DNA of 37,042 nucleotides from Candidatus Avoscillospira stercorigallinarum (GTDB lineage Bacteria; Bacillota; Clostridia; Oscillospirales; Oscillospiraceae). The DNA lies in NCBI GenBank assembly GCA_018713205.1, contig DVFN01000051.1, positions 1-37,042 on the forward strand. The letters run 5' to 3'. The notes under the pieces are model-generated. The model did not search any database. It was not told the DNA's origin and worked only from the letters and a program-made list of their open reading frames with translations. Every line of letters begins with the position of its first letter. The first letter of the stretch is position 1. Made by a program: the position numbers and the translations under genes. This document shows, one piece after another, positions 1 through 37,042 of the stretch.

Positions 1-469
1 ACAGAGCAGCGGGGGAAGTGTGAAGGGGGCAAAAAGCCCCCTTCGCGTTCAATCGACACGTATTTTTAAACTTTTTAGAAAGTTTAAAAATACGCACAGC
101 GTGGCGAAAAGACTTTTTCGACACGCTGGGGCTGCATGCCCACATGCCGCCGATACCGGGTTCCGTGGACCGCAAGCCCAGTGATGCCGGCGGCCCCATT
201 GGGCGGGGTGTGGGCACCCCGCCCGACGGACCAGGTCGAAAGCGCGTCATAGCGCCGGGCACCGGCATATCCGCCGCCTTTCGGACATAGACTGTCGGGA
301 AGGGAGTGGTCCCATGGAACATCTGTGCCGCGACTCCGGCGATCTCGACGACTGGATTTTCGACGGGGAGGATTACAGCGTCAGCCAGCGATAAAAAAAG
401 AAAAAAAGGGCTTGCTTTTTCCGGCCCGGTATGCTATCATATTGGAGCTGAAAGAAACAGCGCCAAGAT

Positions 470-546
470 CCGGGTGTGGCGAAGTTTGGTATCGCGCTTG
501 AATGGGGTTCAAGAGGCCCTGAGTTCGAATCTCAGCACTCGGACCA
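470..546 (+). tRNA. tRNA-Pro(GGG), prophage attachment gene
   Basis: Cloverleaf: acceptor CCGGGTG/CACTCGG, D stem GCGA/TCGC, anticodon arm CTTGA-ATGGGGT-TCAAG (GGG), T arm CTGAG-TTCGAAT-CTCAG, encoded CCA. Confidence 0.95.
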
Positions 547-628: not shown

Positions 629-654
629 TGCTATTGCAGACCTATTGCAGACAA
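629..654 (+). repeat. Putative integrase arm-type site, left end
   Basis: TGCTATTGCAGACCTATTGCAGACAA; 25/26 identical to 34320-34345 at the other prophage end, same orientation. Confidence 0.75.
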
Positions 655-7889: not shown

Positions 7890-8413
7890 TCAACCTCCCA
7901 CAGAATAATATCTCCCTGCCGGGGCAGCGATCCGACGCGGATGCTCTCCTCGGTAGTCTGCCTGTATCCCAGAATCCAATCCAGGTGACCGGGCTTGATC
8001 TCGTTGACAGACGCGATCAGGTCCGCCACGTTCTCCGGCTCCTCGATGGTGCCCACATACCAGATGATGAAGCGGTACAGAGCGGACTCCTCGATGACCT
8101 CTGCCGGGTACTGAGAATAGCTCTGGGCGATGGCCTGGATCAGCGCCTTGGTGGTGACGCCGGCGCCGCGCACCTTGGCGAGAACGCGGTCCCGCCGCCG
8201 CTGCTCACTGAGGGTCCGGTCCGTGGGGATGCCGTAAGCCTCCTCCCAGATCTCCAAGCCCCAGCCGCTGCAGGTGGAGGGGAACAGCTGCCGGAGGGTA
8301 AACGCCATATCGCCGTCGGCCCGGCGCAGCACGTTGAAGATCACGCGCTGCAGCTCCGCGTGCTGCGGGGTCAGCAGGTAAAAGGCAGGGAGCAGCTTCT
8401 CCACTGTGGTCAC
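7877..8413 (-). CDS. DUF2313/YmfQ-like phage tail protein (gpI-type)
   Basis: LLPAFYLLTPQHAELQRVIFNVLRRADGDMAF...GLEIWEEAYGI; position after baseplate J. Confidence 0.75.
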   Translation of the reverse strand: MTTVEKLLPAFYLLTPQHAELQRVIFNVLRRADGDMAFTLRQLFPSTCSGWGLEIWEEAYGIPTDRTLSEQRRRDRVLAKVRGAGVTTKALIQAIAQSYSQYPAEVIEESALYRFIIWYVGTIEEPENVADLIASVNEIKPGHLDWILGYRQTTEESIRVGSLPRQGDIILWEVDCTT

Positions 8414-23855: not shown

Positions 23856-23930
23856 TGGTAGGCCGTCACGGAATCGAACCGTGTCCGCGCTGTTATGAGC
23901 AGCGAGCCCGGACCCTCGGGCCAACGGCCC
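23856..23930 (-). tRNA. tRNA with CAT anticodon (Met or Ile2)
   Basis: Acceptor GGGCCGT/ACGGCCT, D stem GCCC/GGGC, anticodon arm CGCTG-CTCATAA-CAGCG, T arm CACGG-TTCGATT-CCGTG, CCA encoded. Confidence 0.88.
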
Positions 23931-24084
23931 ATATGACGCCCGGACGGGCGGAAGACGGACCCGCCCGGGCTTGCCTCCCTGGCCTCGTGCAGCTCCAGGA
24001 GACCTATGCCTCCTTCGAGGCATGGCGTGGTTTCGGAATGCACGCGATCCGGCCGCCGCGCCCTCATGCAGGCTCTGGCGGCAT

Positions 24085-24118
24085 GAAAAAAGGTGGGGTT
24101 CCTTGTGTTGACCCCACC
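24085..24118 (-). terminator. Rho-independent terminator downstream of RinA/ArpU-like gene
   Basis: Minus strand GGTGGGGT-loop-ACCCCACC followed by TTTTTT. Confidence 0.75.
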
Positions 24119-24157
24119 ATACCACAGGTTATAGGTTTTTTAATGCCAATTTCACCG

Positions 24158-24475
24158 TCACCGCAGACCATCACAGGAAAAGTGTGCGGCGATTTCCCGG
24201 ATAAAATCCCCGTGCCACCGCAACGCTGTCCGCTCGCTGCACGGGATCCGCAGAGCCGCCCCGGGAATGTTGTGCGTCCGTTTTAACAGCACCATTTCCA
24301 CTACAGCCATTCTCGCCTCCCCGTCTCTCCGGCGGCGCGTGGCCTCTATGGCAGCCTCCACCGCCTGGAACTCCGCCAGAGCCGTGCCTTCCAACGCCTG
24401 CCCCACGCGGCCGGGATAGGCCCGAGCCATAGACTTGCAATATCCCCACCAGCGTTTCCGAGCCGCCACACACAT
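24158..24475 (-). CDS. RinA/ArpU-like phage late-gene regulator
   Basis: EAAIEATRRRRDGEARMAVVEMVLLKRTHNIPGAALRIPCSERTALRWHGDFIREIA, upstream of terminase. Confidence 0.65.
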   Translation of the reverse strand: MCVAARKRWWGYCKSMARAYPGRVGQALEGTALAEFQAVEAAIEATRRRRDGEARMAVVEMVLLKRTHNIPGAALRIPCSERTALRWHGDFIREIAAHFSCDGLR

Positions 24476-24492
24476 GCCTCCCTCTTACTCCC

Positions 24493-24723
24493 TCACAGAA
24501 TAAACTTGTCCTTCCCCTCGCCGGGGAAGACGGTGATCTTGGGCCGGACGGGGGCCAGTGCTGTCCTTTTCTGGCAGACGCGGAAGCGGCCACAGGGTTG
24601 CACCTGGCCGCAGCGAGCTGGATCGTTGAGGCAGCGGTCGGGGCAGTCTTGGCGGCTGCAGTCGGCGCAGCAGGGGTCGCCTCGGCGGCGGTGGCATCCG
24701 CCCAGTTGGCAGCTCCTAGCCAT
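24493..24723 (-). CDS. Small Cys-rich (putative zinc-binding) protein
   Basis: CQLGGCHRRRGDPCCADCSRQDCPDRCLNDPARCGQVQPCGRFRVC. Confidence 0.6.
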   Translation of the reverse strand: MARSCQLGGCHRRRGDPCCADCSRQDCPDRCLNDPARCGQVQPCGRFRVCQKRTALAPVRPKITVFPGEGKDKFIL

Positions 24724-24946
24724 GATGGGTCACCAGCCTCTCCAAATCCCGGATCTGCAGCATCCGGTCTCGGACCAGTTTGTCGATCACCCGGCCTTCG
24801 TTGGTGTTCTCCATGGCGGCCAGCCGTCTTATGTTATGCGCCGTCTGTGCTGTCACCAGCACCGACACGCGCCGCAAGTTCTTTTTTCCGCTGCTCATGT
24901 CTGGCATACGCCCCCTTCGCGTTGTCAATGGCTGCGCACAGTTCAT
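24716..24946 (-). CDS. Small RHH/CopG-like protein
   Basis: KNLRRVSVLVTAQTAHNIRRLAAMENTNEGRVIDKLVRDRM. Confidence 0.5.
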   Translation of the reverse strand: MNCAQPLTTRRGRMPDMSSGKKNLRRVSVLVTAQTAHNIRRLAAMENTNEGRVIDKLVRDRMLQIRDLERLVTHHG

Positions 24947-25244
24947 ACCCGTGCTCCACGGTCGGGTCCAGCCTGAACTGGGACCTGGCCGCCTCTGTAT
25001 ACTGCAGCAGGTAGCGCCGCTGATCGGCCAGGAAGCACTGGTACTCCCGCTGTCTCCGGATGTCTGCTGCCAGCTTTTTGAGCCGTTTTTTCTCCGCCAC
25101 GGCTGCCTCCCGGCTTATCATGCCCAGCTGATAGTAGGCATAGAGGCCGCGCAGGGCCATATAGACCGCCGTATCGGCCAGATCCAGCCCGTCCGGAACC
25201 GGCAGCCCGCTCCTGGCCTGATCCTCATAGGGGAAATCACACAC
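24834..25244 (-). CDS. Hypothetical phage protein
   Basis: 136 aa ORF, in operon, overlaps 25237-25491. Confidence 0.55.
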   Translation of the reverse strand: MCDFPYEDQARSGLPVPDGLDLADTAVYMALRGLYAYYQLGMISREAAVAEKKRLKKLAADIRRQREYQCFLADQRRYLLQYTEAARSQFRLDPTVEHGYELCAAIDNAKGAYARHEQRKKELAARVGAGDSTDGA

Positions 25245-25491
25245 GGGTCATCCCTCCGATCCAATCTCCGGCCGCCGTGCAGATGGCAGCGCCCACGAAC
25301 GAAACCGCTGCGCCGGTGAGAAGGTCTGGGTCCACGCCCTTGGCAGCCAGCAGCACACTCACAATCCCCGCCCCGGTAAGCAGCAGGGCCAGCCGTTCCA
25401 GCAGCTTCCCCACAGCCCGAAGAATAGCGTCGGATCGCTCTTCTCGACGCGCCCGCTCCTCCAGCAGGAGCCGCCGCTCCATATCGCTCAT
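25237..25491 (-). CDS. Small membrane protein
   Basis: Hydrophobic segments LLTGAGIVSVLLAAKG / LLTGAAVSFVGAAICTAAG. Confidence 0.55.
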   Translation of the reverse strand: MSDMERRLLLEERARREERSDAILRAVGKLLERLALLLTGAGIVSVLLAAKGVDPDLLTGAAVSFVGAAICTAAGDWIGGMTRV

Positions 25492-25504
25492 TGCAATGCC
25501 CCTT

Positions 25505-25945
25505 TCATACTTCGGTGATGGTCAAGCCCAGCCGCTCGACCATCAGCTTGCGTTTGATCCTGTATGTCTCGGTCCGGGTTGCCCTGCTTTTGACGTCCTC
25601 GACGACGTACTGCCAGGCGCTCCCGTCAAATCGGTAGTAGGTGAAATCCGCCAGATACCGAACAGCCCGGACCCGCTCCCCGGTGGGCGTGGTGTATGCC
25701 GGCTGAAGGGTGAATTCCACCTGCAGCCGCAAGTCCCGAATCGTCCCGGCTGCCTGCTCCAGGCACAGCTCGTCGAAGCGCCGGGCTTCTTTTTGGCTGT
25801 CGAACCGGAGCTTGCCCCGGCTGGCTTCCTGGGCGCCGTACTTGCTCCGGCGCTCCTGGGGCAGCTGTCCGGCCTTCTGCCGGAGCTTGTCCAGAGCCTG
25901 CCGTTGATACCGGGGTGGAAGCGCTCCTAAATCAATTGGCGGCAT
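25505..25945 (-). CDS. DUF1064-family (putative nuclease/resolvase-type) protein
   Basis: RRSKYGAQEASRGKLRFDSQKEARRFDELCLEQAAGTIRDLRLQVEFTLQPAY...YLADFTYYR..WQYVVEDVKS. Confidence 0.8.
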   Translation of the reverse strand: MPPIDLGALPPRYQRQALDKLRQKAGQLPQERRSKYGAQEASRGKLRFDSQKEARRFDELCLEQAAGTIRDLRLQVEFTLQPAYTTPTGERVRAVRYLADFTYYRFDGSAWQYVVEDVKSRATRTETYRIKRKLMVERLGLTITEV

Positions 25946-26318
25946 GGAGCGGTCCCTCCAGATCCCGATCGCGCCGGTAAAGGTTCTCGACGCTGTAGCG
26001 CTCGTCGAAAGGCAGGATATCGTCCCCGCAGGACTCCCGGAGCATGCGGTCCACCACGTCCTTGGTGTAGACGATCTCCGGGTCATCTGCCCCATCCCCC
26101 ACGCAGAGGGCGGCGTATTCCAGGAACGTCTCCCAGAATGCGGCGGCGAATTTCGCGTTGCGGTCCGGACCAAACCCGAGTTTTTCATGGAGCGCAATCT
26201 GCGCCATGTCCAGGCTCTGCTGGAGGGTGAAGCCCTTCATCATCTCCAGCCGGGACTCTAGCTCTGCGATCCTCTGTCGTGCTGCCAGAAGCTGCACGTA
26301 TGTATTCGGCTTAGCCAT
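25932..26318 (-). CDS. Hypothetical phage early protein
   Basis: 128 aa, operonic. Confidence 0.55.
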   Translation of the reverse strand: MAKPNTYVQLLAARQRIAELESRLEMMKGFTLQQSLDMAQIALHEKLGFGPDRNAKFAAAFWETFLEYAALCVGDGADDPEIVYTKDVVDRMLRESCGDDILPFDERYSVENLYRRDRDLEGPLHAAN

Positions 26319-27108
26319 TTGTGTCCTCCTGTGTTCCCATCATCCGCGCCACGGCCTCCCTGGCCCACTCGGGTGGTTCTTGCACGGCTGCAGCTGCTTG
26401 CTTCCGGCCCCGCATGAGGCTGGCCGCCTGCTGCCGTTTGGCTTCCAGCGCGTCCCATTGTTCCAGGTTCCGCACCCCCTGGGCGCACTTATCCCGCAGC
26501 ACCGACCGTATATAGCTCCATTTCCTGGCGTTGTTGTCCTCAGCCACAGAGATTGCCCGGAGGCAGCAGTCCGCCCCCATCTCGTCGATATAGCCCAGGA
26601 GCTGATCCAGGCAGTCCCGGGACGGCGTCGGGTCGATCCGGTCCATGTATGCCTGCATGACGGCGGCGACGTCTTCGCGCGTGCGCGCGTCGGATTCCGC
26701 CTCCGAATACGCATACGCATAGGATTGGATTGGATTACGGGGACTATTGCTGTCATCTGCCGACACATGTCTGCACATGGCAGGAGGGTCCGGAAATTTG
26801 CTGCGCTTTGCACGGACACGCTGGTACTTGTCCCATGTGACAACGCGGAGGAACGGCTTCCCATCTACCTCGTAGAGTTCGACCAAACCAACGGACGCCA
26901 ATTTGGAGAGCGCACCAGTCATGTCCTTTTTTGTCTTGCCTTCCATCAGCGGGAAGAGCCGCGCCTTGAGAATTTCCGGACGGGCGTCGAAGCGCCCGTA
27001 ATCATCGCAGTTTACAATCAGCCTGTGCCAGAAGCGCTCCTCAAAATCGTTGAGCTGATTAAGCGTCTCACTGGAGCAGATGCTTTCTCGAATTAGACGA
27101 TCTGGCAT
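26311..27108 (-). CDS. Phage replication initiator/DnaD-like replisome organizer
   Basis: MPDRLIRESICSSETLNQLNDFEERFWHRLIVNCDDYGRFDARPEILKARLFPL. Confidence 0.75.
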   Translation of the reverse strand: MPDRLIRESICSSETLNQLNDFEERFWHRLIVNCDDYGRFDARPEILKARLFPLMEGKTKKDMTGALSKLASVGLVELYEVDGKPFLRVVTWDKYQRVRAKRSKFPDPPAMCRHVSADDSNSPRNPIQSYAYAYSEAESDARTREDVAAVMQAYMDRIDPTPSRDCLDQLLGYIDEMGADCCLRAISVAEDNNARKWSYIRSVLRDKCAQGVRNLEQWDALEAKRQQAASLMRGRKQAAAAVQEPPEWAREAVARMMGTQEDTNG

Positions 27109-27120
27109 ACCCCCACCGCC

Positions 27121-27570
27121 TTAAAACGGGAGATCCGGGTCGTCCATGTCGAAATACTGATCATACCCGCCGCCGTACTGTGGCTGCTGCGGCTTGGCGG
27201 GCCTTGATGCCTGGCGCGAAGGCTGTTGTCCTGCCGCCGGAGCGGGCATCTGCTGAGCCTGTTTCGGTCCGCAGAAGTGCAGCCGGTCCACCTGGAGCTC
27301 CAGGACCTTCCTGGCCTTGCCGTCCTTGTCCTGATACTCCCGCTGGGTCAGCTGTCCCTCGACCAGCAGCTCCTGGCCCTTGTGGAAATACCGGGCCGCG
27401 TTTTCGGCGGTGCGGTTCCAGGCTACGCAGTCTAGGAATACTTTCCGCTCTGTCTCCCCGATCTTCTCACTCCAGGCCACAGTCAGCGTGGTGACGGCTT
27501 TCCCGCTCCAGGTGCGACGCAGCTCCGGGTCACGGACCAGGCGGCCCTGAAGAACCATGCGATTGATCAT
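27121..27570 (-). CDS. ssb: Single-stranded DNA-binding protein
   Basis: MINRMVLQGRLVRDPELRRT...FLDCVAWNRTAENAARYFHKGQELLVEGQLTQREYQDKDG, acidic DMDDPDLPF tail. Confidence 0.95.
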   Translation of the reverse strand: MINRMVLQGRLVRDPELRRTWSGKAVTTLTVAWSEKIGETERKVFLDCVAWNRTAENAARYFHKGQELLVEGQLTQREYQDKDGKARKVLELQVDRLHFCGPKQAQQMPAPAAGQQPSRQASRPAKPQQPQYGGGYDQYFDMDDPDLPF

Positions 27571-27863
27571 GTCCACACCCCTTCCGTCATTACCGCAATC
27601 CTCTTTGCACATACGGTGCAGATGTGGCAGTTTCCGAGCTGGTGCAGCTCGTATTTTTCAATCCCGCATACCGCGCAGCGCGGCGTCGCTTTTTCGAGGA
27701 CAATAGAGTTTCCGGCAGTGTAGATGGACATCCGGTCTCCTTCTTTGATGTCGAGTGAGCGCCGCAGCTCAACAGGCAGCACAATACGCCCAAGCTCGTC
27801 AACAGGACGGCTGATCCCGGTGGGCCGAGTAGCGCCGTCGCTGCTCATTACAATTCGCGCCAT
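27567..27863 (-). CDS. AbrB/SpoVT-like regulator with C-terminal CxxC cluster
   Basis: ISRPVDELGRIVLPVELRRSLDIKEGDRMSIYTAGNSIVLEK then CAVCG...CHICTVC. Confidence 0.88.
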   Translation of the reverse strand: MARIVMSSDGATRPTGISRPVDELGRIVLPVELRRSLDIKEGDRMSIYTAGNSIVLEKATPRCAVCGIEKYELHQLGNCHICTVCAKRIAVMTEGVWT

Positions 27864-27864
27864 A

Positions 27865-28095
27865 TTACGCGCCTCCTTCCGGGACTTTGCCCGTCATAAA
27901 TTCCAAAAATGCCAGTCGCGGGATCAGGACCCGCCGCCCGAGCACAGTCACCCGAAATCCCAGCTTTGCCAAGTCGTCCTGAGCCTGGACGTTGATAGAG
28001 TAGGCGCTGCAGTGCAGGATCTGCGCCACCTCCGACGGGGTTAATGTGGCCTTGTCCATGGCCCGGATGTCATCAAGCGTCAATCGCGTCTTCAT
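27865..28095 (-). CDS. Excisionase-like/HTH DNA-binding protein
   Basis: LTPSEVAQILHCSAYSINVQAQDDLAKLGFRVTVLGRRVLIPRLAFLEFM. Confidence 0.6.
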   Translation of the reverse strand: MKTRLTLDDIRAMDKATLTPSEVAQILHCSAYSINVQAQDDLAKLGFRVTVLGRRVLIPRLAFLEFMTGKVPEGGA

Positions 28096-28351
28096 GGCAG
28101 ATCACCTCCTGTTTTTTGCTATGATACCGGGCCCGCTGCTTGGCCGCGATCTCCTCGCGGTTGGCCTCCCGGTAGGCCCGCTGCTTGGCCGCGATCTTTT
28201 TCTTTTCAGGCGGAAGCCTGTCAAACATCGCCGCCTTATCCGCCTCTCTGGACCGTTTGATATCCTCATTGGTCAGGCGGAATGTCTTCTCGATCTCCGC
28301 GTCAGCAGCTGCCATCTCGGCCAATTCTTCTGGCGAAAATAAAGGTTTCAT
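28073..28351 (-). CDS. Hypothetical phage protein
   Basis: MKPLFSPEELAEMAAADAEIEKTF..., highly charged. Confidence 0.55.
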   Translation of the reverse strand: MKPLFSPEELAEMAAADAEIEKTFRLTNEDIKRSREADKAAMFDRLPPEKKKIAAKQRAYREANREEIAAKQRARYHSKKQEVICHEDAIDA

Positions 28352-28584
28352 GTTGGTATCCCACCTTTTCCGCCGAATGTATCGCGGACCTTGCCAAGGT
28401 ACTCCACCCCAGCCTCCTGGTGATAAGCTGCATCCTGCCAACGGATGCCCCAGGCAGCTGCGGCGGTGACGAGGGCCTCGGTCCGGTTGGGCGCCACGAT
28501 CCTGATCTCCCGGCCAGCAAACAGCACACGCCAGGCCTTGTCCCCGGTGTAATCCGGGGCACGTTTTGTCACAATATCCGTCAA
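28348..28584 (-). CDS. Hypothetical phage protein (TTG start proposed)
   Basis: LTDIVTKRAPDYTGDKAWRVLFAGREIRIVAPNRTEALVTAAAAWG; start codon uncertain. Confidence 0.5.
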   Translation of the reverse strand: MTDIVTKRAPDYTGDKAWRVLFAGREIRIVAPNRTEALVTAAAAWGIRWQDAAYHQEAGVEYLGKVRDTFGGKGGIPT

Positions 28585-28705
28585 GTTGTTCTGCCCCTTT
28601 CGATGATTTTCCGCGCTGGTCCACGCCTTGCGGCGCACACCCCGTCACTCCAGCGCGGCCGGGGCGTTTGAAAGAGAGGACCCGCCGGCCATGTCACACC
28701 GGCGG

Positions 28706-28779
28706 TGGAGCGGGCAGCGGGAATCGAACCCGCATGGGCGGCTTGGAAGGCCGCTGTGCTGCCGCTGCACCATGCCCGC
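28706..28779 (-). tRNA. tRNA-Gly(TCC)
   Basis: Acceptor GCGGGCA/TGCCCGC, anticodon arm GCGGC-CTTCCAA-GCCGC, T loop TTCGATT, CCA encoded. Confidence 0.92.
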
Positions 28780-28783
28780 ACTG

Positions 28784-28859
28784 TGGTGCGCGGGGGCGGA
28801 TTCGAACCGCCTGCCGCCGGATTTTCAGTCCGCCGCTCATCCGAATGAGCTTCCCGCGC
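28784..28859 (-). tRNA. tRNA-Phe(GAA)
   Basis: Acceptor GCGCGGG/CCCGCGC, D stem GCTC/GAGC, anticodon loop CTGAAAA, T arm GGCGG-TTCGAAT-CCGCC, CCA encoded. Confidence 0.88.
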
Positions 28860-30920: not shown

Positions 30921-32264
30921 GTGGAAGGTGTTATTCTTGTAATCATAATTTGCGCAGTTGTCGCTCTCATTTCCGGACTTGCTAAAATAAGCGACCTATC
31001 AAAAGAATTGAAAGAAAAAGAAGAACTTCTAAACGGGATTGCAAATATTGATGCTTATGCCAAGATAAAAGCAGATGAAATGAATAAACAAGTCGAAGCA
31101 TCCGAGGATAAGATAAATAAAATTATCGCGGATGGAGAAGCTCGTGCCGACTCGCTTGACAATGAGATAAAGAGGTTGGAAGCTAAGAGGCAGTCCCTTG
31201 AGCAGGAAGTCACCAAACTGGAGGGCGAAGTCCTTGTCGAGACTGTCAGGATTGATGCCTACCTGGACATGAAGTCTGAGGACCTAAAGAACAAAATCGC
31301 AGTTCTACGGTCAAAAGAGGACGAGATGATCAAAAATGGCGAGGCCGTGAAGATCACAATGCCTAGCCGAGAAAAGAAGTTCCTCAATAATCAATCTAAG
31401 CAAATTCTACGCTGCTTCAACTCCGAGGTAACGGCCTTGCTGTCTTCGGTGACCTTTAAGAACGTTGATTCGGTAAGGACCAAGATCAGCCGGTCATATG
31501 AGACGGCCAACAAGATCTTTGCCGACGATGGAGTCCAGATCACCCACGAATATGTTTCTGCAAAACTCGAAGAGTTATCGCTAATCTATGCCCAGATCGT
31601 AAAAGAAGAAGAGGAGCGGGAGCAAAGGAAGGCTATCCGGGAGCAGATGGTCGAGGAGGAGAAGGTCCGTCGGGAGATCGAACGTGAAAAGGCGAAGATT
31701 GATAAAGAGACGACCCAGTTCTCCAATGAAGTGAAAAAGCTCATGGGATATCTTCAGAAGTCCTCCAACGATGTAGAGCGGCAGCTGTATGTTGACAAGA
31801 TCTCAGAGCTTGAGGCCAAGATCAAGAGCTTGGAGAAGGACAAGGAGAACGTCCTCCAGCGGGAGCAGAACACCCGGGCTGGTTTCGTTTACATCATCTC
31901 CAATATCGGCAGCTTTGGCGAAGGAGTCTATAAGATCGGCATGACCCGACGCCTCGATCCGATGGAGCGGATCTCTGAGCTGAGCAGTGCGTCGGTACCC
32001 TTTGTGTTCGACGTCCACGCTCTGATCTTCTCTGACGATGCCCCGGCTCTGGAGGCATGTCTGCACCAGACCTTCCGGGATCATCAGGTTAACCGCGTCA
32101 ACAGCAAGAAGGAGTTCTTCCGTGTCGATCTGGACCAAATCAAGGAGATCGTGAAAGAGAATCATAACGCTACGGTGCAGTTCATTGACATTCCAGAGGC
32201 CGCAGAATACCGAGAAACCCTGCGCATTGAGGCTGCCGAGGTCGAGAAGGTGTCTACTCCATGA
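30921..32264 (+). CDS. Membrane-anchored coiled-coil protein with DUF4041-like region and C-terminal GIY-YIG (T5orf172/Mug113) nuclease domain
   Basis: N-terminal TM (VILVIIICAVVALISGL), long coiled coil, central MPSREKKFLNNQSKQILRCFNSEVTALL, C-terminal GFVYIISNIGSFGEGVYKIGMTRRLDPMERISELSSASVPFVFDVHALIFSDDAPALEACLHQTF. GTG start. Confidence 0.85.
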   Translation: MEGVILVIIICAVVALISGLAKISDLSKELKEKEELLNGIANIDAYAKIKADEMNKQVEASEDKINKIIADGEARADSLDNEIKRLEAKRQSLEQEVTKLEGEVLVETVRIDAYLDMKSEDLKNKIAVLRSKEDEMIKNGEAVKITMPSREKKFLNNQSKQILRCFNSEVTALLSSVTFKNVDSVRTKISRSYETANKIFADDGVQITHEYVSAKLEELSLIYAQIVKEEEEREQRKAIREQMVEEEKVRREIEREKAKIDKETTQFSNEVKKLMGYLQKSSNDVERQLYVDKISELEAKIKSLEKDKENVLQREQNTRAGFVYIISNIGSFGEGVYKIGMTRRLDPMERISELSSASVPFVFDVHALIFSDDAPALEACLHQTFRDHQVNRVNSKKEFFRVDLDQIKEIVKENHNATVQFIDIPEAAEYRETLRIEAAEVEKVSTP

Positions 32265-32785: not shown

Positions 32786-32892
32786 AAAATCCCCGCTCCG
32801 GTGTTGGCGCACCGAGGCGGGGAAAGGGGCAGAACAACTTGACGGATTGCTTCTGCCCCTTCATTGTACCATATCATGGAGGGAAAAACAAT

Positions 32893-34029
32893 ATGAATAA
32901 GTGCCGGAAATGCCGCGCCGTTTTGCCGGATGGGGCGAAGTTTTGCCCTGCCTGTGGCGTCAGGCAGGAGACAGCCGCGCATAAGCCCAAGTCCAGGGGC
33001 AACGGCCAAGGGTCCGTCTACCAGCGGGGGAAGACCTGGGTGGCCGTCAAGACCATCGGCTACACCACCGACGAGGCCGGGAAGATGCACCGCCGCACCT
33101 GTTCCAAAGGCGGCTTCCGCACCAAAAAAGAGGCCCTGGAAGCCCTAGCCACCCTGGCGCCCGCTCCCATGGAGCGCCTGGAGACCTTTGGCAGTATCTA
33201 CGACCGCTGGTCCCCAACCCACCGGGCCGGGAAGTCCACCATGGACTGCTATAAGGCAGCCTATAAATATTTCAAGGGGATCGAGGATCTGCCCTTCCTG
33301 GAGATCACCGTGGACGATCTCCAGGACTGCCTGGACGAGTGCCCCAAGGGCAAGCGCACCCGCGAAAATATGAAGGCCCTGGCCGGGCTGCTGTACAAAT
33401 ACGCCATACCACGAAACCTGGCCACGCTGAACATGGGCCAGTATCTGATCGTCGGCGGCGGCGATACCGCCCACCGAAATGCCCTGCCGGACGAGGCTCT
33501 GAAGGCCCTGGAGGAGGGCGTGGGCACGGTGCCCTATGCCGACTATGTCCTGTGTCAGTGCTACCTGGGATTCCGCCCTTCGGAATTCCTGGCCCTGGAC
33601 GCCAAAAACTACAATCGCAAGGAGCGGGCCTTCGTCGGCGGCGCCAAAACCGACGCCGGCCGCGACCGGATCGTCACAGTCTCCCCTAAGATCCAGCCGA
33701 TCATCAACCGCCTGCTCCGGAACAAAATCGCTGGTCCTGTATTCTGCGGCAAAGACGGCCGCCAGATGTCCATTGAAACCTACCGCGCCTTGTTCTACCA
33801 GGCCCTGGACGCCTGCGGCATCGACAACCCCACGGAAGAGTCCAACGGCGCCACCCGCCGCAAATACACCCCCCACAGCTGCCGCCACACCTTCGCGACC
33901 ATGATGAAGCGCGTCACCGGCTCCGACAAGGACAAGCTGGAGCTGATGGGCCATACCTCCACGGAAATGCTCCGCCACTACCAGGACGTGTCCTACGAGG
34001 ATCTCCGGAAGGTCACCAACGCGCTGTAG
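32893..34029 (+). CDS. Tyrosine site-specific integrase with N-terminal zinc ribbon
   Basis: CRKCRAVLPDGAKFCPACG; catalytic LGFRPSE, HSCRHTF, LMGHTSTEMLRHYQDV; RBS GGAGGG before ATG 32893. Confidence 0.93.
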   Translation: MNKCRKCRAVLPDGAKFCPACGVRQETAAHKPKSRGNGQGSVYQRGKTWVAVKTIGYTTDEAGKMHRRTCSKGGFRTKKEALEALATLAPAPMERLETFGSIYDRWSPTHRAGKSTMDCYKAAYKYFKGIEDLPFLEITVDDLQDCLDECPKGKRTRENMKALAGLLYKYAIPRNLATLNMGQYLIVGGGDTAHRNALPDEALKALEEGVGTVPYADYVLCQCYLGFRPSEFLALDAKNYNRKERAFVGGAKTDAGRDRIVTVSPKIQPIINRLLRNKIAGPVFCGKDGRQMSIETYRALFYQALDACGIDNPTEESNGATRRKYTPHSCRHTFATMMKRVTGSDKDKLELMGHTSTEMLRHYQDVSYEDLRKVTNAL

Positions 34030-34319: not shown

Positions 34320-34345
34320 TGCTATTGCAGACATATTGCAGACAA
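34320..34345 (+). repeat. Putative integrase arm-type site, right end
   Basis: TGCTATTGCAGACATATTGCAGACAA, directly repeated TATTGCAGAC, 38 bp from the att core. Confidence 0.75.
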
Positions 34346-34382: not shown

Positions 34383-34431
34383 TGAATGGGGTTCAAGAGG
34401 CCCTGAGTTCGAATCTCAGCACTCGGACCAA
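34383..34431 (+). repeat. attR core
   Basis: Identical to 499-547; only the 3' part of a tRNA is present here. Confidence 0.93.
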
Positions 34432-34470
34432 GACCACCGAAAACAATGCGTTTTCGGTGGTCTTTCTTTT
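34431..34470 (+). terminator. Second copy of the tRNA-Pro terminator right of attR
   Basis: AGACCACCGAAAAC-AATGC-GTTTTCGGTGGTCT followed by TTCTTTT. Confidence 0.85.
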
Positions 34471-34513
34471 CGAAAAGTTCAGCGATATTTTGCAAAATGG
34501 CCTAACATTTTGG

Positions 34514-34565
34514 TCTATTGCTAATCTATTGCAAATCGGAAAGCCGCCCAAAACCGGGCGGCTTT
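34514..34565 (+). repeat. Degenerate copy of prophage left-end arm site plus hairpin
   Basis: TCTATTGCTAATCTATTGCAAATCGGAAAGCCGCCC-AAAACC-GGGCGGCTTT, same spacing from the att core (83 vs 82 bp) as at the prophage left end. Confidence 0.7.
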
Positions 34566-34667
34566 TGTTCACTCTTTTCCGGCGTACACGACTGGAGGCG
34601 GCCCACTCCCTGCCCTCTCTACTCCATGCGCCTGCGTCGTTCACCATAAGCTAAAACTATCACGGCT

Positions 34668-34940
34668 TTATTTTAACGCATCCGTAATTGCTGTGATCTT
34701 ACGATCAACTTCTGCTGAACTCGTCCCCCATTCTGACGCAATCTTATCAACATTAGATCTATATTGGCTATCGGAATGGTATGTTGAAGAATAGGGATCA
34801 TGCTCCGTTTCTCCCGAAACGCAGCCCACAAGCGTTAGTGACAATAGTGCAATTATCACCATACATATAATCTGTTTTAGTGCTTCAAGTTCTTTTCCTC
34901 CTAGTCTATAAGTTCTTGCCCACAAAACAAGCAAGATCAA
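34668..34940 (-). CDS. Small lipoprotein
   Basis: IICMVIIALLSLTLVGC lipobox, 90-aa ORF, start uncertain. Confidence 0.55.
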   Translation of the reverse strand: MILLVLWARTYRLGGKELEALKQIICMVIIALLSLTLVGCVSGETEHDPYSSTYHSDSQYRSNVDKIASEWGTSSAEVDRKITAITDALK

Positions 34941-35049
34941 GGGTTATTTTCATGATATCATCAAAAATCCATATTGTCAATTATTCTATACATCTATAGA
35001 TAATTAAATATCTGCATTTGCAAATTATAATATCACAAGAGGTGATGTT

Positions 35050-35334
35050 ATGATTTGTGACACCATCAAGCAGCTTCGCGAGAATGCCGGTTATTCACAG
35101 TCCGTACTTGCCAAAAAGCTAAATGTTACGCGATCCGCAGTCAACGCTTGGGAAATGGGGCTTTCTGTACCGACAACGCAATATGTCGTGGACATGGCAA
35201 GACTGTTTCGGGTTTCCGCGGATTATCTTCTGGGCCTATCCACTGAAACAACGCTGGTGCTGGACGGTCTCAGTGAGCAGGAAAAGAACATTCTTTATTC
35301 GCTGGTTGACTATTTTAACCAAAACCGTGAATGA
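35050..35334 (+). CDS. XRE-family HTH regulator
   Basis: IKQLRENAGYSQSVLAKKLNVTRSAVNAWEMGLSVPTTQYVVDMARLFRVSADYLLGL; AGAGGTGATG RBS. Confidence 0.88.
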   Translation: MICDTIKQLRENAGYSQSVLAKKLNVTRSAVNAWEMGLSVPTTQYVVDMARLFRVSADYLLGLSTETTLVLDGLSEQEKNILYSLVDYFNQNRE

Positions 35335-35457
35335 AGCTTCCGCTTAAAAGCCCATTCTCTTTTCAACCGTGTAAACGAATGCACGGTGTCTCGAATCCGC
35401 GAAGTGAGTATCTATCTGTGACCAGGCCGGATTAAAACGCCTCTGCCGGTTTTATTT

Positions 35458-35850
35458 TTGGAGGAGATGAAAGCTATGATTGATTTTAATAACGCGTCCT
35501 TTTTGAAGCTGAAGCCCGTCCCGGAGCAAAACTTTCTTCCGATGATCCAGCCGCTGTTTGTCCCCGGGGAAGAGGTGATCCAGGCATTTCAATCCATCCG
35601 GGATGGCGTCGTGTTCACGACAAAGCGCATTTTTGCGATCAACATCCAGGGTATCACCGGAAAGAAGAAGGATTTCTCCAGCCTCCCCTACAGCAAAATC
35701 CAGGCATTTTCTGTGGAGACCGCCGGCGTGCTGGATCTCGACAGTGAGCTGGAGCTTTGGTTCTCTGGTCTTGGAAAGGTGAAATTTGAGTTTACGGCCA
35801 GATCCAACGTTTCGGAGATTTGCAGGCTCATCAGCGAGAGAGTTCTATAA
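35458..35850 (+). CDS. Bacterial PH-domain-like protein
   Basis: VPGEEVIQAFQSIRDGVVFTTKRIFAINIQGITGKKKDFSSLPYSKIQAFSVETAGVLDLDSELELWFSG. Confidence 0.75.
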   Translation: MEEMKAMIDFNNASFLKLKPVPEQNFLPMIQPLFVPGEEVIQAFQSIRDGVVFTTKRIFAINIQGITGKKKDFSSLPYSKIQAFSVETAGVLDLDSELELWFSGLGKVKFEFTARSNVSEICRLISERVL

Positions 35851-35952
35851 TCTTACAGATTTCAGCAGGCAGCAGTAAATGCTGCGGCAATCCATACCAC
35901 AACATATATGGATTACACGTCATAAAATGAATATATTGCCTACATCTTGCGA

Positions 35953-35981
35953 TTGCATTTTTCTGGTTTTTGGCATATAAT
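35953..35981 (+). promoter_or_regulatory. Promoter of ToxI-like RNA
   Basis: TTGCAT-N17-TATAAT. Confidence 0.8.
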
Positions 35982-36046
35982 AAGAGTGCGGAGAAGTCCG
36001 CAAGTGTGAATTTAACGCTCCTCGTTATCTTCACCTCCTTTCAGAG

Positions 36047-36154
36047 CGGAGAGCCCGAGCCGAAAATCGGGACCGGAAAAAGCGGAAAGTCTATGCCGTA
36101 AGTTAGACCTCAAAAAAGCGGAGAGCCCTTGCCGTAAGTAGGGACCTAAAAAGG
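36047..36154 (+). ncRNA. toxI: ToxI-like type III antitoxin RNA: three tandem 36-nt repeats
   Basis: Repeats at 36047-36082, 36083-36118, 36119-36154, each CGGARAG...GCCG.AA....A.., with covarying stem; followed by a terminator and ToxN ORF. Confidence 0.88.
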
Positions 36155-36182
36155 GGCAGGCGTTTTGCCTGCCCCTTTCTTG
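36149..36182 (+). terminator. Terminator between ToxI repeats and toxN
   Basis: AAGGGGCAGGC-GTTTT-GCCTGCCCCTT then TCTT. Confidence 0.9.
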
Positions 36183-36196
36183 TTTGCTGGAGGAAT

Positions 36197-36682
36197 ATGG
36201 AGACACTCAAAATATATCGTATTTCGGATAAATACATACGGTTCTTAAAGAGCCGCGACACCAGAGTGCAGGACAATAAAAACCGCCGGAGGCCTTACGT
36301 CGGCGTCGTGCTGTATGTCGGCGAATTTCGTTACTTTGTGCCGATGGAATCACCAAAGCCAAACCACGCGAAGATCAAGGCTGGAAAGCACATTATGAAG
36401 CTTGCCGGCGGAAAACTTGGTCTGCTGGGTTTTAACAACATGATCCCGGTCCATGAGGCTGCGCTGATCGCATTTGATATCGATCAGGAGCAGGACAAAC
36501 AGTATGCCGAGCTTTTAAAGCGGCAAGCGTCATTCATCAACCGGAATAAAGCTGACGTATTGGACCATGCTTCGCAGACCTACTACAGCGCTACCTCGCA
36601 GAAAAACAAATTCCTGCTTGAAATATGCTGTGACTTTAAGAAGCTGGAAAAAGCCTGCGGACAGTATGATCCAAGCCGTTAA
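36197..36682 (+). CDS. toxN: ToxN/AbiQ-family type III toxin endoribonuclease
   Basis: LKIYRISDKYIRFLKSRDTRV..NKNRRRPYVGVVLYVGEFRYFVPMESPKPNH...LGLLGFNNMIPVHEAAL; directly downstream of tandem RNA repeats and terminator. Confidence 0.9.
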   Translation: METLKIYRISDKYIRFLKSRDTRVQDNKNRRRPYVGVVLYVGEFRYFVPMESPKPNHAKIKAGKHIMKLAGGKLGLLGFNNMIPVHEAALIAFDIDQEQDKQYAELLKRQASFINRNKADVLDHASQTYYSATSQKNKFLLEICCDFKKLEKACGQYDPSR

Positions 36683-36816
36683 AAACTTTGCTCCTTTGTT
36701 GACGCACCGGAACAGAAGAAAATACAGAATAACTGATAAAGACCGCATTGGGCGTTTTATAGTACAATAGCCCTGCAAGACATATTGCACCGAAAGATCC
36801 GCTCCAAAAGCGGACG

Positions 36817-36854
36817 CAAGAGGCACCGTGCTCGAACCTCAACACGCGGACCTA
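36817..36854 (+). repeat. Decayed tRNA-Pro 3' end (candidate old att site)
   Basis: CAAGAGGCACCGTGCTCGAACCTCAACACGCGGACCTA aligns without gaps to CAAGAGGCCCTGAGTTCGAATCTCAGCACTCGGACCA at 29/37 positions. Confidence 0.6.
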
Positions 36855-36875
36855 TAAACCCTAAAATGATATTCC

Positions 36876-37042
36876 TAAGGCAGCACCGCACAATTTGGCA
36901 AGAGCATTCGACCAAAGATTTTGCCTCATACGAAAGTTATAAAAGGGCGGGAATACTGTATGTATTTCCCCCTTTTATAACTGCACGGATGGGGCAAAAG
37001 ATTGGGCGAAGGCCGCAGACACAATTGTGCGGTGATGCCCTA
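36876..37042. mobile_element. MITE-like imperfect palindrome with terminal inverted repeats (may continue past the window)
   Basis: TAAGGCAGCACCGCACAATT at 36876-36895 versus reverse complement of 37022-37042 (TAGGGCATCACCGCACAATTG); inner arms AGTTATAAAAGGG/CCCTTTTATAACT. Confidence 0.7.

What the first reader, a model, noticed from the sequence alone, without database searches (positions are those of the whole stretch)
34383..36854. ToxIN sits on a tandem, integrase-less element whose ends mimic the prophage ends
Right of attR the sequence repeats the architecture of the prophage left end: tRNA 3' end, terminator, CGAAAA(G)TTCAGCG, a degenerate doubled CTATTGC arm site 83 bp from the core (82 bp in the prophage), then an AAGCCGCCC/GGGCGGCTT hairpin. 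At the far side, GACATATTGCA (36778-36788, as in the prophage right arm) precedes a decayed tRNA-Pro 3' end (29/37) at 36817-36854. Between them are a lipoprotein, an XRE regulator, a PH-domain protein and ToxIN, with no integrase. Inference: this is either the remnant of an earlier phage at the same site or a small satellite/CIME-like defence cassette that the resident integrase could mobilise in trans or together with the prophage.
Basis: partly seen in the sequence, partly recalled or inferred. Interest (0 to 1): 0.82.

Follow-up and report, generated by a model that had tools for sequence, protein, structure and literature searches.

The report
ToxIN on a decayed tandem element
Next to an apparently complete prophage in a gut bacterium's tRNA-proline gene sits the shrunken leftover of an earlier, related integrated element that lost its integrase and one working end but kept an intact phage-defence toxin-antitoxin system; it is a clear example of a known process, not a new kind of element.

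Summary
The sequence right of attR (34383-36854) is a second element. Its left end copies the prophage's left end (82% over 183 bp, same 132-bp core-to-arm spacing); its doubled-arm pattern occurs three times in 401 related genomes, all in this window; its right end carries a prophage-type arm word (1/5000 shuffles) and a decayed tRNA-Pro 3' end (29/37). A congener (G006) has the empty site: tRNA-Pro directly followed by an inositol-monophosphatase gene. The window ends in a MITE; another contig of the same genome starts in that MITE and continues into that gene, so the remnant is the host boundary. ToxN is absent from the 7 other congeners. The interpretation needs narrowing. The cargo (XRE, PH, ToxIN) looks like the repressor-to-integrase end of a temperate phage with the integrase deleted (XRE...PH-integrase order in Lactococcus phage ul36 and two gut elements). 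The right crossover site is dead (12/20 versus 18-20/20 elsewhere), so excision by the resident integrase is unlikely, though untested. Best reading: a CIME-like relic accreted in tandem, whose defence cargo was kept. New member of a known kind.

The parts
470..546 (+). tRNA-Pro(GGG), integration target; 499-546 is the attL core
   Evidence: ARAGORN; 48/48 identical to 34383-34430
631..652 (+). doubled 11-bp left arm of the resident prophage (CTATTGCAGACCTATTGCAGAC)
   Evidence: identical doublet in viral contig L158
30921..32264 (+). PD-Lambda-1-like defence gene of the resident prophage, in the position that ToxIN holds in the relic
   Evidence: PADLOC 9.1e-121
32839..34029 (+). tyrosine integrase of the resident prophage
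   Evidence: Pfam PF00589 1.7e-14; relatives with the same att plan
34322..34343 (+). doubled right arm of the resident prophage
34383..34464 (+). middle att site (attM): exact tRNA-Pro 3' end plus terminator; shared by prophage and relic
34515..34535 (+). doubled left arm of the relic (CTATTGCTAATCTATTGCAAA), 132 bp from core start as in the prophage
34540..34565 (.). GCCGCCC/GGGCGGC hairpin, as at the prophage left end
   Evidence: sequence
34668..34940 (-). small putative lipoprotein (annotation weak)
   Evidence: PF24052 E=0.004, below cut-off; no PHROG
35050..35334 (+). XRE-family regulator
   Evidence: HTH_3 5.5e-15
35458..35850 (+). bacterial PH-domain protein; homologues sit directly before integrases
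   Evidence: bPH_1 3.1e-38
36045..36152 (+). ToxI antitoxin, three 36-nt repeats with covarying pseudoknot stems
36150..36186 (+). Rho-independent terminator between toxI and toxN
   Evidence: inverted repeat I10
36197..36682 (+). ToxN/AbiQ-family ribonuclease toxin, intact
   Evidence: PF13958 1.4e-51; AbiQ 4.1e-48; PDB 4ato 3.3e-21
36778..36789 (+). degenerate right arm of the relic (AGACATATTGCA)
36817..36853 (+). displaced, decayed host tRNA-Pro 3' end (29/37): far boundary of the relic; crossover core 12/20
36878..37042 (.). MITE at the contig end, about 40 genomic copies; contig C24 starts in it and continues into the IMPase gene

Best explanation
34383-36854 is the relic of an older element, most likely a temperate phage, that integrated by site-specific recombination into the same tRNA-Pro(GGG) gene with an integrase of the same or nearly the same specificity as the resident prophage's. 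It restored the tRNA with its own 3' end and pushed the host's original 3' end to the far side, where it has decayed. The element lost its integrase and nearly everything between its left end and its repressor end, keeping XRE, PH and ToxIN. Later the present prophage integrated into the restored tRNA 3' end, giving attL-prophage-attM-relic-attR' (accretion). Shown: the tandem layout, arm homology, intact cargo, and the host boundary (by synteny). Inferred: phage origin, order of events, integrase deletion. ToxIN most likely works as in its family: ToxI RNA pseudoknots hold the ToxN ribonuclease inactive until phage infection upsets the balance. The relic is probably no longer mobilisable by the resident integrase, because its right crossover site is destroyed.
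For: Left end and spacing; arm pattern confined to this window among 401 genomes; same plan in phages with related integrases; right arm word and tRNA remnant; empty site in G006 and IMPase at the start of C24; ToxN absent from 7 congeners; XRE...PH-integrase order in ul36, MT837424 and G016; recombinase near ToxN in five of seven close relatives; right core 12/20; three ORFs open despite 8/37 decay of the neutral tRNA copy (0 of 3000 neutral simulations).
Against: No phage structural gene is left in the relic, so phage origin rests on neighbourhood and ends. No integrase fossil was recognised. The C125-C24 link passes through a repeated MITE. No strain with the relic alone was found. Decay is measured on only 37 bases.
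Confidence: 0.68

Rival explanations
1. The relic derives from a non-phage integrative element (IME-like, with a plasmid-type Rep) that carried XRE, ToxIN and an integrase, rather than from a phage.
For: L063 carries a 75%-identical ToxN with XRE genes, a G2P-like Rep and an integrase beside tRNA-Pro(CGG); a 4.4-kb Rep-plus-integrase element occupies tRNA-Pro(GGG) in G038.
Against: The relic's ends match phage att sites in arm sequence and spacing; the PH gene's closest named homologue is a phage gene beside an integrase; no Rep or mobilisation gene is present.
Confidence: 0.17
2. An active CIME or satellite-like cassette that the resident integrase excises in trans, or together with the prophage.
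For: Left arm fits the resident integrase's arms closely; cargo intact; tandem accretion with cis-mobilisation is documented for ICEs.
Against: Right core 12/20, 4/11 at the crossover; right arm doublet degenerate; no copy elsewhere in 98 relatives by DNA or in viral contigs by ToxN or arm.
Confidence: 0.1
3. Ancient chromosomal flank, tRNA duplicate or assembly artefact; the repeated ends are chance.
For: Full tandem tRNA-Pro duplicates exist in G060; G000 is a fragmented MAG.
Against: The remnant far exceeds shuffles and has no 5' half; G006 has no such genes between tRNA-Pro and IMPase; ToxN is absent from 7 congeners; arms lie at both ends.
Confidence: 0.03

Closest known systems
CIME (cis-mobilizable element) accreted in tandem with an integrative element (PMC5704250)
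   Same: Integration genes lost, both ends recognisable, flanked by a tRNA 3' end, in tandem with an element using a related att site
   Different: Partner is a prophage, not an ICE or IME; the right core is decayed, so mobilisation is doubtful
ToxIN / AbiQ type III toxin-antitoxin family (PMC5086642)
   Same: ToxN toxin, three 36-nt antitoxin repeats, terminator between, pseudoknot covariation
   Different: Nothing structural; only its location on a decayed tRNA-Pro element
Lactococcus phage ul36 repressor-to-integrase module
   Same: Repressor upstream and 70%-identical PH gene, same direction
   Different: Here ToxIN follows PH and the integrase (and metalloprotease) are missing
ToxIN-bearing integrative element in L063 (rabbit-gut Oscillospiraceae MAG)
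   Same: 75%-identical ToxN, XRE genes, tRNA-Pro neighbour
   Different: Has integrase and Rep; next to the CGG isoacceptor; no PH gene

Membership tests
Type III TA, ToxIN family | ToxN-family toxin | tested here: met
   PF13958 1.4e-51 over the whole model; PDB 4ato 3.3e-21
Type III TA, ToxIN family | Tandem 34-36-nt antitoxin repeats upstream | tested here: met
   Three 36-nt repeats, 36045-36152
Type III TA, ToxIN family | Rho-independent terminator between antitoxin and toxin | tested here: met
   Perfect 12-bp inverted repeat 36150-36178 followed by TTTCTTGTTT
Type III TA, ToxIN family | Pseudoknotted antitoxin unit | tested here: met
   Two crossing stems, 91% of cells paired, 20 double-change cells, 0/500 shuffles
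Type III TA, ToxIN family | ToxN toxicity neutralised by ToxI; phage resistance | not testable with these tools
   needs expression and plating assays
CIME | Integration and transfer genes lost | tested here: met
   No integrase, Rep or mobilisation gene in 34383-36854
CIME | attL retained | tested here: met
   Core 48/48, doubled arm, same spacing
CIME | attR retained | tested here: inconclusive
   Arm word and tRNA remnant recognisable, but crossover core 12/20, so probably inactive; filed as CIME-like relic, not as a working CIME
CIME | Cis-mobilisation with the accreted element | not testable with these tools
   needs excision assay
Phage satellite (PICI-like) | Own integrase, replication and helper-interference or packaging genes | tested here: not met
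   Only lipoprotein, XRE, PH and ToxIN
Remnant temperate phage | Repressor-to-integrase type gene neighbourhood | tested here: met
   XRE...PH-integrase order in ul36, MT837424 and G016; integrase itself absent here
Remnant temperate phage | Phage structural or packaging genes | tested here: not met
   None in 34383-36854; so phage origin is inferred, not a membership claim

The most novel reading that the evidence does not exclude
The resident integrase still excises the ToxIN cassette, alone or with the prophage, despite the decayed right core, making it a phage-driven cis-mobilisable defence cassette.
Probability: 0.07. Interest if true: 0.7.

Novelty: new member of a known kind. Interest (0 to 1): 0.4.

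Why it matters
It documents base by base how a defence system can outlive the element that brought it: attachment site and integrase decay while ToxIN stays intact, and the att site is reused by a new prophage that itself carries a PD-Lambda-1-like defence gene. Such stacking at one tRNA gene is one way defence islands may grow, and the locus is a clean test case for whether relics next to prophages are still mobile.

Tried and rejected
Relatives of the whole element: DNA search of 34383-36880 in 98 relatives and of 34430-35050 in 400 family genomes found only tRNA, hairpin or single-gene matches. ToxN, the relic's own arms and the attM sequence in viral contigs: none. Rfam matches (SpF03, Phe_leader, mir-5727, BjrC1505) are below gathering scores and rejected as chance hairpin matches. 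Integrase fossil in 36683-36805: three-frame translations show nothing recognisable by eye. Synonymous rates for ToxN and PH saturated, so only dN (0.10-0.19) could be given. tRNA-Pro(CGG) as parent of the remnant was rejected: 26/37 against 29/37 for GGG. No structure prediction was run: families were already clear from sequence.

Full report
Setting. The window is a complete contig (C125, 37,042 bp) of a metagenome-assembled genome, G000, of 2.19 Mb in 138 contigs. It holds a tRNA-Pro(GGG) at 470-546 and a complete-looking contractile-tailed prophage: terminase, portal, major head protein, tail sheath, tape measure, endolysin and a tyrosine integrase at 32839-34029.

Observation. The 3' end of the tRNA is repeated exactly at 34383-34430 and, beyond it, terminator, doubled CTATTGC arm and GCCGCCC hairpin follow as at the prophage left end: 82% identity over 183 bp. 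The core-to-arm distance is 132 bp in both. Searching 401 family genomes for CTATTGCWRAYNTATTGCWRA gives three matches, all in this window: the two prophage arms and the arm at 34515. At the far side AGACATATTGCA (36778-36789) repeats the prophage right arm (1 of 5000 shuffles), and 36817-36853 matches the tRNA 3' end at 29/37, local score 22 against a maximum of 14 in 300 shuffles. The 5' half of the tRNA is not there (11/40), so this is not a decayed tandem tRNA gene.

Arms and core in related phages. Viral contigs with related integrases show the same plan around the integrase: 11-bp repeats, mostly doubled, on both sides of a core TGAATGGGGTTCAAGAGGCC with a tRNA 3' end and a terminator (repeats read by eye). 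One of them (L158, integrase 59% identical) has the identical doubled arm CTATTGCAGACCTATTGCAGAC. The doubled repeats are therefore most likely integrase arm sites, and the left end of the ToxIN element is a real end of this type.

Host boundary. In the congener G006 the tRNA-Pro is followed by a terminator and directly by an inositol-monophosphatase gene. The G000 orthologue begins at base 151 of contig C24, which starts inside a MITE; the window's last 128 bases equal C24's first 128. The MITE has about 40 copies, so the overlap alone proves nothing, but with the synteny it places the IMPase gene about 45 bp, MITE excluded, after the third tRNA fragment. The fragment is thus the displaced host tRNA end. 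ToxN occurs in 16 of 401 family genomes, this one included, and in none of the 7 other congeners.

Cargo. XRE, PH and ToxN are full-length. ToxIN meets the family's sequence criteria (PMC5086642): toxin, three 36-nt repeats, terminator, and the repeat's pseudoknot stems covary over 14 units from six loci (20 double-change cells, none of 500 shuffles reaches that). The PH protein is 70% identical to ORF124 of Lactococcus phage ul36, which lies directly before the integrase in the order repressor, metalloprotease, ORF355, PH, integrase. XRE...PH-integrase order also occurs in gut phage scaffold MT837424 (74%, integrase there recognised from its sequence only) and in G016 (83%). ToxN's nearest relatives lie near a tyrosine integrase (L063, L143) or a serine recombinase (L064, L144, L146) in five of seven cases. 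So XRE-PH-ToxIN reads as the integrase-proximal end of an element whose integrase is gone: only 95 bp separate the toxN stop from the right arm, and no integrase fossil was recognised there. The resident prophage has a matching plan: regulator, PD-Lambda-1-like defence gene, a small ORF, integrase, att.

Can it still move? Site-specific excision needs two matching crossover sites (established for tyrosine recombinases; not shown here). The core is 20/20 in six viral contigs and at both ends of the G011 element, 19/20 in L158 and 18/20 at the displaced end in G038; at 36806-36825 it is 12/20, with 4/11 in the part around the anticodon loop. Mobilisation by the resident integrase is therefore unlikely, though untested. 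At the remnant's divergence (8/37), XRE, PH and ToxN would not all have stayed open under neutral drift (0 of 3000 simulations; about 1% at the lower confidence bound), so the cargo has probably been kept by selection or addiction while the mobility parts decayed.

History. Tandem elements with a decayed member are well described: integration, decay to a CIME, then integration of a second element at the shared att site (PMC5704250). The order here follows from the ends: the far tRNA copy is old and decayed, the middle copy is exact. Phage origin of the relic is favoured over IME origin because of the PH neighbourhood and the ends, but is not proven.

Verdict. It is a new member of a known kind.

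Noticed in passing
window 30921-32264: The resident prophage carries a PD-Lambda-1-like defence gene (PADLOC 9.1e-121) two genes before its integrase.
   Followed up: partly
G066:C1:108046-108269 (L008; L154 about 8047-8270): Three ToxI-like repeats with their leader but no toxN; HicA/HicB-like ORFs (recognised by eye) follow, then an integrase 41% identical to the one beside ToxIN in L063. Possibly an orphan antitoxin.
   Followed up: partly
L069 5317-9716 (G038:C18): A 4.4-kb element in tRNA-Pro(GGG) with an integrase and a Rep of the Viral_Rep plus RNA_helicase type (CRESS-like), flanked by a partial tRNA copy.
   Followed up: partly
G011:C18:9206-41590 (L067, L068): A displaced tRNA-Pro 3' end about 32 kb from the intact tRNA-Pro suggests another integrated element at the same target; its genes were not examined.
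   Followed up: no
window 36878-37042: MITE with terminal inverted repeats and TA flanks, about 40 full or partial copies in the genome, many at contig ends.
   Followed up: partly
window 1-130: Repeat found on several other contigs of this genome and in congeners.
   Followed up: no
window 23856-28859: tRNA-Met, tRNA-Gly and tRNA-Phe genes inside the prophage.
   Followed up: no
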